Below are positions 35,966 through 41,879 of a stretch of 64,000 nucleotides of DNA, piece after piece. The translations under genes were made by a program, and so were the position numbers. Every line of letters starts with the position of its first letter. Position 1 is the stretch's first letter. The notes below the pieces were generated by a model, which saw nothing but the letters and a program-made list of their open reading frames with translations, ran no database searches and was not told the DNA's origin. Source of the DNA: Flavobacterium faecale (lineage in GTDB: Bacteria > Bacteroidota > Bacteroidia > Flavobacteriales > Flavobacteriaceae); assembly GCF_003076455.1 (NCBI RefSeq), contig NZ_CP020918.1, forward strand, positions 2,640,001 to 2,704,000. Reading direction: 5' to 3'.

Positions 35966-36214
35966 ATGAACACCAAACTCACTTTAAAGCTTGATCAGGA
36001 GATAATTGAAAAGGCCAAGCAATACGCTTCGGATAAGAAAGTAAGTTTATCTCGTCTGATAGAAAATTATCTTAATGCTTTAACTTCAGATAAACCCAAT
36101 GATGATTTACAGATCTCTCCTTTTGTAAAAAGTCTGTCTTCCGGAATTTCTATTCCATTGGATTACGATTATAAAAAAAGTAAAGCAGATTATTTAAACC
36201 AAAAAAACAAATGA
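35966..36214 (+). CDS. DUF6364-type antitoxin
   Basis: 82 residues. TKLTLKLDQEIIEKAKQYASDKKVS is a ribbon-helix-helix-like DNA-binding segment; the C-terminal tail (SPFVKSLSSGISIPLDYDYK) would wrap the toxin. It overlaps the start codon of the PIN-domain toxin remnant by ATGA, the usual arrangement in this kind of VapBC-like module. The antitoxin is intact although its toxin is broken. Confidence 0.8.
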   Translation: MNTKLTLKLDQEIIEKAKQYASDKKVSLSRLIENYLNALTSDKPNDDLQISPFVKSLSSGISIPLDYDYKKSKADYLNQKNK

Positions 36215-36623
36215 TTAGGCTGCTTGTAGGCACCAATGTAATTTTGGATTTGTTGGCCGAAAGAATACCTTTTTATTATTCAATTGTCAAGCTGCCACTT
36301 TGCCTGATTAAAAGATAATTACTTTGGTTGCTTCGCCACTTTCTTTCACAACAGTAGATTATATTTTAAATAAATTTGAATCATCTGAGTCTGTTTTGAG
36401 TAAACTTCGAAAGTTTAAAATAATCTGCGAAGTTTGTGAAGTGGATGAACAAACGATTGAAAAAGGACTTAATTCGGGTTTTAAAGATTTTGAAGATGCT
36501 GTTCAATATTTTACAGCGTTGCATTCCAGTTGTTCGATTATCATCACTAGAAACGGAAAAGACTTTAATACTGCTACAATTCCAATTATGACTGCCGAGG
36601 AATATTTGAGTAGTGTTTTGTAA
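36211..36623 (+). pseudogene. Decayed PIN-domain toxin
   Basis: The first frame reads MIRLLVGTNVILDLLAER, a PIN start, but the catalytic Asp of the usual VDTNV is Gly (GGC). The frame is then lost after IPFYY; homology continues in another frame (NCQAATLPD), meets a TAA where Lys is expected and resumes KIITLVASPLSF, finishing with the conserved DFEDAVQYF and ITRNGKDF. PIN toxins are RNases; with a lost active-site Asp, a frameshift and a stop, this copy cannot work. The 99-residue open frame from 36324 is only its C-terminal part. Confidence 0.8.
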
Positions 36624-36877: not shown

Positions 36878-37147
36878 ATGAGCAAAATAATGACAGTCGA
36901 CGTCTTGTCGAGTATTAAAGGAGCACAGCCTTCAGAGAGTGTGAATAAATTGTTTGATGTAATCAAGAATGCAAATGCATCAAATAATAATGCTACCAAT
37001 AATGTCAATTATAATTGCGTGTCTGTAAGTGATTTAAGAGATGATGTGGTAATTGAAAGCTCGGCGATTGAGAAAGAACTCATCATGGAAAATTTCCCAA
37101 ACAAGAAAAATGGATTTTTAGTAGTTGCTAAAGTTATAGAAGGATAA
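36878..37147 (+). CDS. Divergent GatC-like subunit of tRNA amidotransferase
   Basis: 89 residues. The C-terminal half, LRDDVV...MENFPNKKNGFLVVAKVIE, matches the end of GatC (LReDxx...xxNAPxxxdGfxxVPkvle), the belt that wraps GatA and GatB. The N-terminal half is Asn/Ser-rich (NANASNNNATNNVNYN) and lacks the clear first helices of standard GatC, so it is shorter and diverged. It stands immediately before gatA, with TAATG overlap, in the normal C-A-B order. GatC stabilises the amidase; alternative: an unrelated small protein, which I consider unlikely. Confidence 0.7.
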   Translation: MSKIMTVDVLSSIKGAQPSESVNKLFDVIKNANASNNNATNNVNYNCVSVSDLRDDVVIESSAIEKELIMENFPNKKNGFLVVAKVIEG

Positions 37148-38547
37148 TGATGGAATCTCAAATAAGAAATATACACCAACAATTGGTGTCAAAAGAAATA
37201 ACTTGTACTGCTTTGGTGCAAGAAAGACTCGATTTGCTAAAGCAAAACACCTATAATTCGGTAAATGCTTTGCTTGATACTATGGCGCTTGATTTGGCGG
37301 CAAAGGTAGATGCAAAAATTGCAAATGGAGAAACAATCGGTTTGTTGGAAGGTATTCCGTTTGGAATAAAAGATGTGTACATGGTGCAAGGAACCTACAC
37401 AACAGCAAGTTCTGATTTGTTGAAAAACTATAAATCACCTTATACAGCAACTGCCATTCAAAAATTATTGGATGCTGGTGCAATTCCGTTGGTGAAAGAA
37501 AACTGTGATAGTTTTGGTCACGGTTCTTCTAGTGAAAACACCATTTTTGGAGCGGTAAAAAATGCCATTAAGCCAGAATTGGTTGCAGGTGGTTCAAGCG
37601 GAGGTTCTGCTGTGAATGTGGCCAAGGACTACACTGTTTTTTCTATCGGTGGAGACACAGGAGGTTCGATTCGTCAACCTGCAGGATACAATAATATCTA
37701 CGGGTTGAAACCAACTTACGGACGTGTTTCTAGATTTGGTTTAATGGCGTATGCGTCTTCTACAGATTGCGTGGGCCCATTGGCAAAATCAATCGAAGAC
37801 ATTCGTATTGTGATGAATGTCATGAGCGGAAAAGATCCAAAAGACCAGACTTCGATTGCATCAAACGAAATTTCAGAAGAAGATATTGCTCATTCGACAG
37901 TGAAAACAATCGGTTATTTTAAAAATTTTATCGAAAGTGATGCTATTGATGCGCAAATAAAAGCAGATTTTTTAGCAGCTATCGAAAAAATAAAAGCCAA
38001 AGGAATTGCAGTTAAAGAACTAGATTTCTTTAAATCAGATATCTTAGTTTCGACTTATTATACTTTGGCAATGGCAGAGACGGCTTCCAATTTATCACGT
38101 TTAGACGGGACAAACTACGGAAACCGAATTGAGTCTGAAAACTTAATTGAAACTTACGCAGTAACGCGTTCTGAGAATTTTTCGGAAGAAACAAAACGCA
38201 GAATCGTAGGAGGGAACCAAGTATTGTCTCAAGGTTTCTCGGATGCGATTTATTTGAAAGGTTTGGCTTTAAGAGACCAAATTTCGGAAAACTTCCGTAA
38301 GGATTTTGAAGAAGTCGATATCATTTTATCTCCAGTAACCCCAAGTACACCTCCAAAAATCGGAGACAGTTTGAAAGACCCTTTGGCGATGTATTTGTCA
38401 GATGCTTATACAGTAGGTTTTAGTTTGGGACAATTACCAACAATGACAGCGCCACAAGGAACAAGTACAGGACTGCAAATTACGGCAGCAAAAAATAATG
38501 ACGAATTAGTGATGCAATTTGCTAACTTCTTAAAAGATACACTATAA
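37147..38547 (+). CDS. gatA: Asp-tRNA(Asn)/Glu-tRNA(Gln) amidotransferase subunit A
   Basis: 466-residue amidase that hydrolyses glutamine and delivers ammonia to GatB. The amidase triad is complete: Lys75 in GIPFGIKDVY, Ser150 in GGSSGGSA and nucleophile Ser174 in GGDTGGSIRQPA. Their spacings (75 and 24) equal those of the Staphylococcus enzyme. A second ATG at 37150 could be the start. It overlaps the GatC-like gene at the start and gatB::aspS at the end (TAATG both times), so translation of the operon is tightly coupled. Confidence 0.95.
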   Translation: MMESQIRNIHQQLVSKEITCTALVQERLDLLKQNTYNSVNALLDTMALDLAAKVDAKIANGETIGLLEGIPFGIKDVYMVQGTYTTASSDLLKNYKSPYTATAIQKLLDAGAIPLVKENCDSFGHGSSSENTIFGAVKNAIKPELVAGGSSGGSAVNVAKDYTVFSIGGDTGGSIRQPAGYNNIYGLKPTYGRVSRFGLMAYASSTDCVGPLAKSIEDIRIVMNVMSGKDPKDQTSIASNEISEEDIAHSTVKTIGYFKNFIESDAIDAQIKADFLAAIEKIKAKGIAVKELDFFKSDILVSTYYTLAMAETASNLSRLDGTNYGNRIESENLIETYAVTRSENFSEETKRRIVGGNQVLSQGFSDAIYLKGLALRDQISENFRKDFEEVDIILSPVTPSTPPKIGDSLKDPLAMYLSDAYTVGFSLGQLPTMTAPQGTSTGLQITAAKNNDELVMQFANFLKDTL

Positions 38548-41500
38548 TGGAATTGGAACAATTAAATGCGGCGATCATTGCCCACGATTTAGAATTGGTA
38601 ATCGGAATTGAAACTCACGTTCGATTAAATACCAAAACCAAGTTGTTTTGTTCTTGTCCAAATCAAGAAATTGAAACACCTAATCAAAATATATGTTCGG
38701 TTTGTACGGGGCAAATGGGCGTTTTGCCTGCTCTAAATAAAGAAGCGATTACTAAAGCGATTTATTTTGGAAAAGCGGTAGAATCAACCTTTAGTAACGA
38801 AGTGATTTCTTGGGATAGAAAGCACTACGAATATCCAGACAACCCAAAGAACATTCAAATTACACAATATCATAATCCTGTAATTCCTGATGGTCACGTT
38901 TCTTGTTATAGAAATGATGGTTCTCAGTTTACAGTAAACTTGACTCAGGTTCATATCGAAGAGGACGCTGCAAAATTGATGCACGAAAAGAAAATTTCGT
39001 TAGTCGATTTCAACAAAGCAGGTGTGCCATTAATCGAAATTGTTACAGAGCCATGTCTTCGAAATATCGAAGATGCTTCAACTTATGCGCAGTACATTCA
39101 GCGTATCGTTCAAAATTTAGGAATCTCTGAAGCGAACCTTGAAAAAGGAGAATTCAAATCGGATGTTTCGGTTTCGTTACGTAAAAAAGACAGTGCCGAA
39201 TTAAACCCAAGAACTGAAATCAAAAACTTGAACTCGTTTAAGTTTATGGTCGAAGCTTTGAAAGAAGAAGTAGAGAAGCAATTCAATTATTTTATCGAAA
39301 ATAAAGCGTTTAGACCCGATCAAACCACGGTTTTATGGGATGCCGATTTGAAGCAAACCAAAGTGATGCGTAAAAAGGAATTCGAAGCAGATTACCGTTT
39401 TATTTCGGAGCCAGATTTACCTTTTGTAAACATCAAAAAAGAAATTGAAGCGATTTCTGTAGATACTGCATCTTTGCCTTTCGCAGTAGAATCAATTTTG
39501 ATAAAAGGTAGCGTATTGCCGCAAGATGCTAAGTTTTTTACAGCAGATGCTTTGCGTTCTAGAACCTTTGTAACCTTAAATAATTCGATAAATGACCCTT
39601 CGTTTGTGGCTAAAACTTTAGCAAACAATGTGAAAGCAGAGGATTATGTCAAAATTAATAACATAGCGCATCTAATCACCATTTTTGTATTATTCAAAGC
39701 CGAAAAAATTACGGCAGTTTTAGTTCAAAATGCGATTGCAGGCTATTTGAAAGATCATAATTTTGATTATAACAAGTATTTCGAAGAAAACACCATTTCT
39801 GAAGAGAAAATCCAAGAAGTGATTACAACAGTACTTGCTGAAAACGAAGCAGTAGCCAATGACATCAAAGCCGGAAACCAAGGAAAAGCCGGTATTTTGG
39901 TTGGTAAAGTTTTAGGCGTAGTTGGAAAAGGTGCTGATGGAAAAGTAATTCGTCAAATTATCCTAGACCAATTGGGAGCTGCAGCCATTTTAGAAAAGAA
40001 AGAAGCCGCTCAAAATGATTCGAAAGAAATAGAAGTAGAGAGCAAAGGGCATCAAGAAGAAACACTTCCTGAAGTGCCAATCATAATTAAAGACAATTAC
40101 AGAACACACAAAATCTCACAACTGTCTGAGGAAAATATCAATCAAGAAGTAGAATTATCTGGTTGGGTAGCGTCTGTGCGTGACCACGGTGAATTGATGT
40201 TTATCGATTTACGTGATTCTAGTTACGAGATTTTCCAGGTTCGAATTAGTAGAGAATCGTTCCCAAATATTGATGATTTGGTGAAATTAAAACCAGAATC
40301 GGTAATTTCTGTAAAAGGAATTGTTGTTGGGCGTAATGAAGATGATTTCAATGCAGGTTTGCGTACGGGTAAAATCGAAATGGAAACGTCTGTTTTAGAA
40401 ATTTTGAATTTATCGAAGACCTTGCCTTTTGAAATAAAAAGAGCTGCCAAAACAAATGAAGCAACTCGTTTTCAATACAAATTCTTAGACCATAGAAATG
40501 ATGAGGTTCGTAGAGCCATTGTCAACCGTCATAAAGTGATTAAATTATTGCGTGACATATTAGATGAAGAAGAGTTTTTAGAAATTGAAACTCCAATTCT
40601 AAGTGCCGGAACAGATGAAGGAGCACGCGAATTTATCGTTCCAACACGTAAAGGAGCAGGTATGTTTTATACGCTTCCACAAGCGCCACAGCAGTTCAAA
40701 CAAATGTTGATGGTAAGTGGTTATGAGAAGTATTTCCAAATTGCACGTTGTTTTAGAGATGAGGATTCTCGTGGAGATCGTCAACCGGAATTCACACAGT
40801 TGGATATCGAAATGGCATACGCAAGCATGCAGCAAATTATCGATTTGAACACCAAAATGTTCAATAACATCGTTACTAAAATCTACGGTAAAAAATGGAT
40901 TTTGCATCCGTTTGAAGTCATCACCTATAAAGATGCTATGGATTTCTACGGTTGTGATAGACCAGATTTGCGTTACGGATTAAAAATGCAAGACATTACC
41001 GAAATCGTAAAAGAAACTACTTTCCAAGTATTCAGCAAGCCAATTGATGAAGGCGGAATTGTAAAATGTATCAAAGTTTCGGCTCAAGAGCAAGGAAACA
41101 AACGTATGTCCAAAGGGCAAATTGAAACATTGACTGCCGTTGCACAACAACACGGTTTAGGTGGCTTGGCTTATATTATCGTAAATGAAACCGAATTGCA
41201 ATCGCCAATTATTAAATTCTTAGGCGAAGAAATTGCAGCTGGAATTATCAAAGCAACTGATGCACAAGTGGGAGATATTGTATTCTTTTCGGCAGCAGAT
41301 TATGCTACGGCAAACAAAGCTTTGGATGCTGTTCGTCAAGAAATGGGTCGAATGTTGAATTTGATTAACCCAAAGGAATTGCGTCCGGCTTGGGTAATTG
41401 ATTTCCCAATGTTCGAAAAAACAGACGAAGGAAGATGGACGTTTACACACAACCCGTTCTCGATGCCAGCAATCTACGATCTGAAAAAGCACATGGATGG

Positions 41501-41879
41501 TAATGAAGACGAAATTGGAACGATCATCGCACAACAATACGACATTATCTTAAACGGTTACGAAATAGGAGGTGGTTCTGTACGTGCACACAAATCGGAA
41601 ATTCTAGAAGCGACGTATAGAAATATGGGGTACAACAAAGAAGAGATGATGAAGAGCGTAGGAACAATGTACAAAGCCTTCCAATACGGTGCACCACCAC
41701 ACGGAGGAATCGCTTGGGGAATTGACCGACTAATGATGATTTTGGAGAAAAAAGCTTCGATTAGAGAAGTAATGGCTTTCCCAAAAACAGGATCTAGTGA
41801 AGATTTATTATTCGGAGCACCATCGCTTTTATCTGATAGAAAAGTAGAGGAGATGAATGTTAGGATTTTGAGGAAGTAG
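38547..41879 (+). CDS. gatB-aspS: GatB-aspartyl-tRNA synthetase fusion (bifunctional)
   Basis: 1110 residues. Residues 1-482 are GatB, the kinase/transamidase: ELVIGIETHVRLNTKTKLFC with zinc cysteines (FCSC...CSVC), QVHIEEDAAKL, DFNKAGVPLIEIVTEP and the YqeY-like tail. A charged linker (about 483-517) joins a full bacterial AspRS (518-1110): anticodon OB fold (SGWVASVRDHGELMFIDLRD), motif 2 (FRDEDSRGDRQPEF, from 736), GAD insertion and motif 3 (GIAWGIDRLMMIL, 1054-1066). The usual AspRS start Met-Tyr-Arg-Thr-His is Asn-Tyr-Arg-Thr-His here, so there is no separate start. Asp-tRNA(Asn) made by one half could pass straight to the other. Confidence 0.93.
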   Translation: MELEQLNAAIIAHDLELVIGIETHVRLNTKTKLFCSCPNQEIETPNQNICSVCTGQMGVLPALNKEAITKAIYFGKAVESTFSNEVISWDRKHYEYPDNPKNIQITQYHNPVIPDGHVSCYRNDGSQFTVNLTQVHIEEDAAKLMHEKKISLVDFNKAGVPLIEIVTEPCLRNIEDASTYAQYIQRIVQNLGISEANLEKGEFKSDVSVSLRKKDSAELNPRTEIKNLNSFKFMVEALKEEVEKQFNYFIENKAFRPDQTTVLWDADLKQTKVMRKKEFEADYRFISEPDLPFVNIKKEIEAISVDTASLPFAVESILIKGSVLPQDAKFFTADALRSRTFVTLNNSINDPSFVAKTLANNVKAEDYVKINNIAHLITIFVLFKAEKITAVLVQNAIAGYLKDHNFDYNKYFEENTISEEKIQEVITTVLAENEAVANDIKAGNQGKAGILVGKVLGVVGKGADGKVIRQIILDQLGAAAILEKKEAAQNDSKEIEVESKGHQEETLPEVPIIIKDNYRTHKISQLSEENINQEVELSGWVASVRDHGELMFIDLRDSSYEIFQVRISRESFPNIDDLVKLKPESVISVKGIVVGRNEDDFNAGLRTGKIEMETSVLEILNLSKTLPFEIKRAAKTNEATRFQYKFLDHRNDEVRRAIVNRHKVIKLLRDILDEEEFLEIETPILSAGTDEGAREFIVPTRKGAGMFYTLPQAPQQFKQMLMVSGYEKYFQIARCFRDEDSRGDRQPEFTQLDIEMAYASMQQIIDLNTKMFNNIVTKIYGKKWILHPFEVITYKDAMDFYGCDRPDLRYGLKMQDITEIVKETTFQVFSKPIDEGGIVKCIKVSAQEQGNKRMSKGQIETLTAVAQQHGLGGLAYIIVNETELQSPIIKFLGEEIAAGIIKATDAQVGDIVFFSAADYATANKALDAVRQEMGRMLNLINPKELRPAWVIDFPMFEKTDEGRWTFTHNPFSMPAIYDLKKHMDGNEDEIGTIIAQQYDIILNGYEIGGGSVRAHKSEILEATYRNMGYNKEEMMKSVGTMYKAFQYGAPPHGGIAWGIDRLMMILEKKASIREVMAFPKTGSSEDLLFGAPSLLSDRKVEEMNVRILRK

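What the first reader, a model, noticed from the sequence alone, without database searches (positions are those of the whole stretch)
38547..41879. GatB fused to aspartyl-tRNA synthetase in a single 1110-residue chain
One uninterrupted frame carries a whole GatB (1-482), a charged linker and a whole bacterial AspRS (518-1110) with motifs 2 and 3 and GAD insertion. The AspRS start Met is replaced by Asn (MYRTH to NYRTH), so an independent AspRS start is absent. Known transamidosomes hold AspRS, tRNA(Asn) and GatCAB together non-covalently; here two components are covalent, which would channel Asp-tRNA(Asn) to amidation. I believe similar fusions are annotated in some relatives, but I do not know of biochemical study.
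Basis: partly seen in the sequence, partly recalled or inferred. Interest (0 to 1): 0.72.

Follow-up and report, generated by a model that had tools for sequence, protein, structure and literature searches.

The report
Fused two-step asparagine-on-tRNA enzyme
A Flavobacterium-like bacterium carries one long protein joining the enzyme that loads aspartate onto tRNA to the enzyme that turns it into asparagine; in a sample of its family the fused protein was seen only where the usual asparagine synthetases are missing, so it is probably how these bacteria make asparagine.

Summary
In detail: 38547-41879 is one open frame of 1110 aa with complete GatB and complete bacterial-type AspRS, third gene of a gatC-gatA-gatB::aspS run. 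It is a family trait: the fused frame is whole in 79 of 81 sources checked; the other two end at contig ends. NCBI records already name it a GatB/AspS bifunctional protein. What the fusion is for came from a survey of 119 genomes of the family: it was listed in 21, and 0 of those 21 have AsnB (over the curated cut-off) or AsnA, while 95 of the 98 others have at least one. The pattern needs about 12 changes on a one-gene tree, and 7 of 7 independent supported pairs agree (p 0.016). tRNA(Asn) has the U1-A72 pair GatCAB needs; the AspRS half has the His of non-discriminating AspRS. Best reading: a covalent asparagine transamidosome that replaces AsnB. Its AspRS belongs to a clade shared with some Patescibacteria, and the fusion seems to have moved between lineages. 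Weak points: AsnB-like paralogs in 9 of 21, an odd GatC, three genomes with an unseen extra match. No activity has been shown.

The parts
36878..37147 (+). gatC-like frame, 89 aa; C-terminal part GatC-like, N-terminal part replaced by a conserved MTVD(V/I)LSSIKGA stretch
   Evidence: PF02686 23.4 bits, cut-off 23; TIGR00135 24.8 bits, BELOW cut-off 47.1, profile positions 26-93; stretch kept in 77 of 77 aligned, window included
37147..38547 (+). gatA, 466 aa, glutaminase subunit; only amidase-family match found in the genome
   Evidence: PF01425 380.1 bits; TIGR00132 434.1 bits, below its cut-off 481.1, but the best hit
38547..41879 (+). gatB::aspS fusion, 1110 aa; start codon overlaps the gatA stop by 1 base
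   Evidence: same overlap in 78 of 78 sources where gatA was found, window included
38547..39977 (+). GatB part, residues 1-477 (catalytic domain and YqeY-like tail)
39978..40094 (+). linker, residues 478-516; residues 481-510 variable (mean top-residue frequency 0.42), then a better kept LPEIPIIIKD-like stretch
   Evidence: low pLDDT 479-503
40098..41876 (+). AspRS part, residues 518-1110 (OB anticodon-binding domain, class II core, GAD insertion)
40185..40187 (+). codon of His547, aligned with the His of the non-discriminating AspRS of Pseudomonas aeruginosa (Leu in E. coli and Thermus AspRS1, Lys in this genome's free AspRS); His in 79 of 79 fusions

Best explanation
The operon gatC-gatA-gatB::aspS makes a covalent asparagine transamidosome. 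The AspRS half loads aspartate onto tRNA(Asn); the tRNA's acceptor end then swings to the GatB half of the same chain, which activates the aspartate with ATP and amidates it with ammonia from GatA, giving Asn-tRNA(Asn). In these bacteria this is the route by which asparagine is made, replacing the free-standing asparagine synthetase AsnB. A separate AspRS serves tRNA(Asp), and AsnRS is kept to charge asparagine taken up or recycled. Shown: gene content, fusion, gene order, exclusion of AsnA and AsnB in the sample, U1-A72 in tRNA(Asn). Inferred: tRNA specificity, amidation, channelling, subunit arrangement.
For: Same 119 genomes: fusion frame (1115-1123 aa) listed in 21; AsnB over the 499-bit cut-off in 90, none of them one of the 21 (tallied); AsnA in 8, none of the 21. 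So 0 of 21 against 95 of 98 have a synthetase (Fisher p 1.7e-20, uncorrected for kinship). On an AspRS1 tree of 117 of the 119 (G030 had no AspRS1 row; G051 dropped as a very long branch) the fusion label needs 12 changes (11-13 over bootstraps), 7 forced by supported branches, and 7 of 7 independent pairs go the opposite way (p 0.0156). In 12 of the 21 the best AsnB match is about 1e-12 or weaker, so no close AsnB relative at all. The fusion of G109 nests beside that of G087 (97/96) although G109 is the outermost of the 21 by AspRS1, which suggests horizontal gain, and G109 too lacks AsnA and AsnB over the cut-off. Two identical tRNA(Asn) genes with U1-A72, the pair that GatCAB needs (PMC4206432, sections 16 and 17 read). 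His547 in 79 of 79. GlnRS is present, so GatCAB is not needed for Gln-tRNA.
Against: This genome still has an AsnB relative (L008, 615 aa) over TIGR01536's cut-off (429.9 against 267.1), though only 274 bits against the AsnB model (cut-off 499) and beside a glycosyltransferase-like gene; it could make free asparagine. Eight more of the 21 have AsnB-like matches under the cut-off. The list of places broke off: three AsnB-bearing genomes (G048, G108, G116) have a fourth class II match that I did not see; it would score under about 320 bits while the listed fusions score 347-361, but if all three were fusions the exclusion would not be complete (3 of 24 against 92 of 95, Fisher p 3.2e-17). One of the 90 AsnB matches (G106) has two stops inside. 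Three genomes (G070, G075, G092) have none of the three routes, so lack of a synthetase does not require the fusion. With AsnB alone and a quicker tree only 5 supported pairs were found (p 0.0625). The tree rests on one gene, 25 of 114 inner branches are supported and its bootstrap had not settled; gains cannot be told from losses. At the second position that I recall as a specificity determinant the fusion has Asp599, neither the Gly of P. aeruginosa nor the Lys of E. coli. GatC and GatA are under their NCBIfam cut-offs.
Confidence: 0.8

Rival explanations
1. The fused AspRS is discriminating or merely a spare AspRS, and GatCAB serves Gln-tRNA(Gln) or is a leftover; the fusion has no role in asparagine synthesis.
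For: GatCAB beside AsnRS, GlnRS and an asparagine synthetase is called possibly vestigial in some bacteria (PMC4206432). Asp599 is not the P. aeruginosa residue.
Against: GlnRS is present. None of the 21 listed fusion genomes has AsnA or AsnB over the cut-off. The sequence is kept at 81-99% identity across genera with catalytic regions near invariant, unlike a leftover.
Confidence: 0.11
2. The operon makes Asn-tRNA for something other than protein synthesis (for example a peptide or cell-wall amino acid), or acts on another tRNA.
For: The canonical synthetases looked for are present, so translation could run without it if asparagine is available; GatC and GatB are far from other families.
Against: Exclusion with AsnA and AsnB points to asparagine supply. 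I saw no biosynthetic neighbours beside the operon in the window; relatives were not surveyed for this. Two ordinary tRNA(Asn) genes with U1-A72 exist.
Confidence: 0.05
3. Two proteins are made in the cell: the chain is cut in the variable linker, so the link is only a translational coupling.
For: The linker (481-510) is variable and predicted disordered. A few metagenomic records seem to carry the halves as separate frames (DNA not seen).
Against: One unbroken frame in 79 of 81 sources and no Met at the AspRS boundary in 79 of 79; linker length, counted from residue 477 to 516, stays within 37-52. A second GatB-AspRS fusion with another kind of GatB exists (P0206).
Confidence: 0.08

Closest known systems
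Bacterial asparagine transamidosome of Pseudomonas aeruginosa (PDB 4WJ3) and Mycobacterium tuberculosis
   Same: Bacterial-type AspRS with the His of the non-discriminating form, GatCAB, tRNA(Asn) with U1-A72; the two halves match 4WJ3 chains.
   Different: There AspRS and GatCAB are separate; in M. tuberculosis they join only with tRNA (PMC8406222, passages seen). Here AspRS is covalent and additional to a free AspRS.
Thermus thermophilus / Deinococcus radiodurans AspRS2 + GatCAB (PDB 3KFU)
   Same: Second AspRS beside a discriminating AspRS1, AsnRS and GlnRS, in bacteria without AsnA and AsnB (PMC4206432).
   Different: Their AspRS2 is archaeal-type and free. Here it is bacterial-type (TIGR00458 182.4 bits, cut-off 368.4) and fused.
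AspRS::GatC bifunctional protein (NCBIfam PRK12820; a like protein seen here in Acetoanaerobium, L092)
   Same: Covalent link between AspRS and a GatCAB subunit. In L092 a 700-aa AspRS::GatC (GatC part 82.5 bits over 47.1) is followed by a gatA-like frame (my reading) and a GatB match.
   Different: Other subunit (GatC, at the AspRS C-terminus). The L092 AspRS has Leu, not His, at the specificity position (RRDLGG), and L092 itself is under the PRK12820 cut-off (640.7 against 1379).
NCBI product 'bifunctional amidotransferase subunit GatB/aspartate--tRNA ligase AspS'
   Same: The same protein, named so in many Flavobacterium records.
   Different: A name only; my searches of the open-licence PMC library listed no study of it.

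Membership tests
Asparagine transamidosome (works like) | GatB kinase/transamidase subunit | tested here: met
   TIGR00133 345.0 over 314.8; aligned with solved GatBs over the catalytic domain
Asparagine transamidosome (works like) | GatA glutaminase subunit | tested here: inconclusive
   PF01425 380.1 bits over 27 but TIGR00132 434.1 under its cut-off 481.1; the Ser-Ser-Lys motif is seen in the sequence, the motif itself is recalled
Asparagine transamidosome (works like) | GatC subunit | tested here: inconclusive
   PF02686 23.4 over 23; TIGR00135 24.8 under 47.1
Asparagine transamidosome (works like) | AspRS that accepts tRNA(Asn) | tested here: inconclusive
   His547 matches the non-discriminating form; Asp599 matches neither form; activity not testable
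Asparagine transamidosome (works like) | tRNA(Asn) with U1-A72 | tested here: met
   two identical genes, L097 1470-1543 and 1624-1697
Asparagine transamidosome (works like) | AspRS, GatCAB and tRNA form one particle | not testable with these tools
   only the AspRS-GatB link is given by the gene
tRNA-dependent asparagine synthesis as the asparagine route | no asparagine synthetase where the system is present | tested here: met
   0 of 21 listed fusion genomes with AsnB over cut-off or AsnA; 95 of 98 others with one. Caveats: AsnB-like paralogs under the cut-off in 9 of 21; an unseen fourth match in three AsnB genomes
Bacterial AspRS (TIGR00459) | score over curated cut-off | tested here: met
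   626.6 over 373.85
Archaeal-type AspRS2 (TIGR00458) | score over curated cut-off | tested here: not met
   182.4 under 368.4
AspRS::GatC (PRK12820) | GatC joined to AspRS; score over cut-off | tested here: not met
   460.3 under 1379; gatC is a separate frame

The most novel reading that the evidence does not exclude
The fusion is a mobile, self-contained asparagine-making module that swaps with AsnB, and because a free AspRS1 covers tRNA(Asp), its AspRS has become an AspRS for tRNA(Asn) alone: the aspartate counterpart of the GluRS2 of Helicobacter pylori that charges only tRNA(Gln) (GluRS2 as described in PMC9976931, passage seen). GatB-AspRS fusion arose at least twice on AspRSs of one clade shared with some Patescibacteria.
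Probability: 0.25. Interest if true: 0.8.

Novelty: new variant of a known kind. Interest (0 to 1): 0.62.

Why it matters
Transamidosomes are thought to protect the code by handing Asp-tRNA(Asn) straight from synthetase to amidase, but in the known cases the particle is held together by tRNA, so channelling is hard to test. A natural chain with both active sites makes it testable: cut the linker and measure leakage. It also means that whether a member of this family can make asparagine cannot be read from asnA and asnB alone. A published survey of 547 genera reported a second AspRS in Deinococcus-Thermus and 15 further genera, and its text names no Bacteroidetes among those that also have AsnRS (PMC4206432, section 16 read; its supplementary tables were not seen), so the fused AspRS may have been overlooked there.

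Tried and rejected
A first structure prediction from 15 close relatives was poor (mean pLDDT 41.5) and was not used; the second, from 61 rows, was good. A tRNA gene near the operon: none in the window nor in the 31 of 80 related loci that I scanned. The idea that the fused AspRS is this cell's only AspRS was rejected. The idea that the AspRS half is a recent copy of the cell's own AspRS1 was rejected: the two fall on opposite sides of a long, fully supported branch. An archaeal-type AspRS like that of Thermus was rejected. A single gain of the fusion without loss is not supported: 12 changes on the best tree, none of 200 bootstrap trees with one. Whether GatB in other Bacteroidota families is fused was only partly seen: one search found GatB in 316 of 392 phylum genomes, but its list of places broke off; the frames it listed were 375-621 aa, so unfused. 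The literature searches listed no study of the fusion, but most subscription journals are not held. PMC3927822 (passages and section 3) counts 12 of 14 Bacteroidetes with GlnRS and without gatCAB; it does not treat AspRS.
Full report
WHAT IS THERE. The frame 38547-41879 (+) codes 1110 aa without a stop. Residues 17-300 and 355-476 are the two GatB domains, and 535-609, 637-1081 and 829-926 are the OB fold, class II core and GAD domain of a bacterial AspRS. Both halves pass the curated cut-offs of their NCBIfam models (gatB 345.0 over 314.8; aspS_bact 626.6 over 373.85). Upstream, each overlapping the next by one base, lie an 89-aa gatC-like frame (36878-37147) and gatA (37147-38547). The GatC is odd: its C-terminal part is GatC-like, its N-terminal part is a kept MTVD(V/I)LSSIKGA stretch (77 of 77 aligned), and it scores under the NCBIfam cut-off (24.8 against 47.1). 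GatA too is under its equivalog cut-off (434.1 against 481.1). These are the only GatB, GatA and GatC matches found in the genome. That the three genes are one transcript is inferred from their spacing.

IT IS A FAMILY TRAIT. With the window, 79 of 81 hold the complete fused frame; two are cut by contig ends. In 78 of 78 where gatA was seen the overlap is the same. The place of the AspRS start is never Met in 79 aligned fusions. The linker (residues 477-516) is 37-52 residues long and variable, while both enzymes are highly conserved. NCBI names the protein as a GatB/AspS bifunctional enzyme. Some metagenomic records seem to hold the halves as separate frames on one contig (P0166 and P0259, P0197 and P0278, P0181 and P0287, judged by equal contig lengths); whether these are sequencing frameshifts is not known. 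An AlphaFold model (mean pLDDT 82.0) shows two folded halves and a disordered linker, with further low stretches in the AspRS half (682-712, 737-750, 1081-1095); Foldseek matches it to solved AspRS and GatB structures, including chains of both kinds from the P. aeruginosa transamidosome.

THE GENOME HAS A SECOND, FREE AspRS. The window's genome is one contig of 4.62 Mb. It holds a free AspRS of 582 aa, AsnRS, GlnRS and GluRS, no AsnA, and one AsnB relative of 615 aa that is over the general TIGR01536 cut-off (429.9 against 267.1) but scores only 274 bits against the AsnB model (cut-off 499) and lies beside a glycosyltransferase-like and a murB-like gene (names are my reading). The second PF00733 match of the genome is an mnmA-like gene (L009; my reading).

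WHAT IT IS FOR. I asked, in the same 119 genomes of the genome's family (Flavobacteriaceae, judging by the named relatives; 118 genera), which have the fusion and which an asparagine synthetase. The fusion (class II hit in an open frame of 1115-1123 aa) is listed in 21. AsnB over its cut-off is in 90 (one, in G106, has two stops inside) and AsnA in 8 (three of these also have AsnB). None of the 21 has either; of the other 98, 95 have at least one; G070, G075 and G092 have none of the three routes. Fisher's test gives p 1.7e-20, which ignores kinship. The list broke off, and three AsnB genomes (G048, G108, G116) have a fourth class II match that I did not see. The listed fusions score 347-361 bits and the unlisted matches under about 320, so these are probably not fusions; were all three, the table would be 3 of 24 against 92 of 95 (p 3.2e-17). 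With kinship: on a tree of the free AspRS from 117 genomes (G030 gave no AspRS1 row; G051, a very long branch rated 7% contaminated, was dropped) the fusion label needs 12 changes (11-13 over bootstraps), 7 of them forced by supported branches, and in 7 of 7 independent supported pairs fusion and synthetase go opposite ways (p 0.0156). A quicker tree with AsnB alone gave 5 such pairs, p 0.0625. The bootstrap of the better tree had not settled. The window's genome (fusion) and G102 of the same genus (AsnB, no fusion) are sisters in the first tree. In 12 of the 21 the best AsnB match is about 1e-12 or weaker; in the other nine there are AsnB-like matches under the cut-off, which is the main weakness.

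SUPPORTING DETAIL. GatCAB needs U1-A72 in tRNA(Asn) (PMC4206432, sections 16 and 17 read). Two identical tRNA(Asn) genes here have it. At the position where P. aeruginosa's non-discriminating AspRS has His, and E. coli and Thermus AspRS1 have Leu, the fusion has His in 79 of 79; this genome's free AspRS has Lys. That these positions set specificity is recalled; one search for it found no held paper. At the second recalled position the fusion has Asp, which fits neither form.

ORIGIN. Among the 120 listed relatives of the AspRS half, leaving aside fragments and apparent splits of the fusion, the nearest free AspRS is from a Candidatus Peregrinibacteria record (P0198, 597 aa, 61%). A further set at 48-51% (twelve proteins among P0221-P0238) is rich in Trp where Gly is expected, as if UGA codes Gly, which points to Gracilibacteria-like Patescibacteria (inference). 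In the AspRS tree these and the fusions form one clade, split by a long, fully supported branch from the cell's own AspRS1, the five reference AspRSs I added and another Peregrinibacteria AspRS (P0239). The GatB half is 34-37% identical to the complete unfused GatBs listed (two partial alignments reach 46-48%). One metagenomic protein, P0206 (13 member sequences, one contig, N-terminus cut off), is also GatB-AspRS, but its GatB groups with a set that includes a Patescibacteria GatB while its AspRS groups with the fusion clade, so fusion seems to have happened, or one half been swapped, more than once. P0206 is a long branch in both trees, so this is tentative. Within the family the fusion of G109 nests beside that of G087 although by AspRS1 G109 is the outermost of the 21, which points to horizontal transfer; overall the two distance matrices of the 21 agree in part (Mantel r 0.36, reached by 19 of 2000 permutations). 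Inside the window's genus GatB is patchy: three listed genomes with it, 20 listed without (capped list).

HOW IT MOST LIKELY WORKS. AspRS charges tRNA(Asn) with Asp; the acceptor end moves to GatB on the same chain; GatA frees ammonia from glutamine; Asn-tRNA(Asn) is released to EF-Tu. Steps from charging onwards are inferred from known transamidosomes. Since ND-AspRS is a dimer in M. tuberculosis (PMC8406222, passages seen), the particle may be a dimer of GatC-GatA-fusion. AsnRS is probably kept for asparagine from food and recycling, as proposed for Thermus, Deinococcus and S. aureus (PMC4206432).

NOVELTY. The chemistry is known and the fusion is named in databases. My searches of the open-licence PMC library listed no study of it. 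New here, as far as those searches go: that it is a second AspRS, its exclusion with AsnB and AsnA, its patchy and partly horizontal spread, the Patescibacteria-related AspRS, and a likely second fusion. I file it as a new variant of a known kind.

Noticed in passing
L097 1767-1854 (own genome, C1 near 1.119 Mb): A third tRNA(Asn)-like copy after two identical tRNA(Asn) genes carries an extra palindromic stretch near the variable loop; ARAGORN calls it, Rfam's tRNA model does not reach its threshold. Probably a degenerate copy.
   Followed up: partly
window 35966-36623: Just upstream of gatC: a small antitoxin-like frame (82 aa) followed by what looks like a broken PIN-domain gene (99-aa remnant). 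Names are my reading of the sequence.
   Followed up: no
P0221, P0222, P0224-P0227, P0230, P0232, P0235-P0238: AspRS proteins with 1.5-6.5% Trp and as little as 0.2% Gly, with Trp at conserved Gly positions: they look like UGA=Gly organisms translated with UGA=Trp.
   Followed up: partly
L092 1474-6568: In Acetoanaerobium noterae (a chromosome-sized record filed as a plasmid) an AspRS::GatC frame, a gatA-like frame and a gatB match lie in a row: another covalent link of AspRS with GatCAB.
   Followed up: partly
L023: A contig filed under a Lentimicrobium MAG carries a fusion 91% identical to the window's, with the same gene order: probably a mis-binned Flavobacterium contig.
   Followed up: no
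G070, G075, G092: Three genomes of the family with neither AsnA, AsnB over the cut-off nor a listed fusion; G075 is rated 99% complete, so it may be an asparagine auxotroph or have another route.
   Followed up: no
P0167: A fragment of the fusion's AspRS half is filed under the isopod Idotea baltica, marked as contamination: probably a bacterial companion.
   Followed up: no
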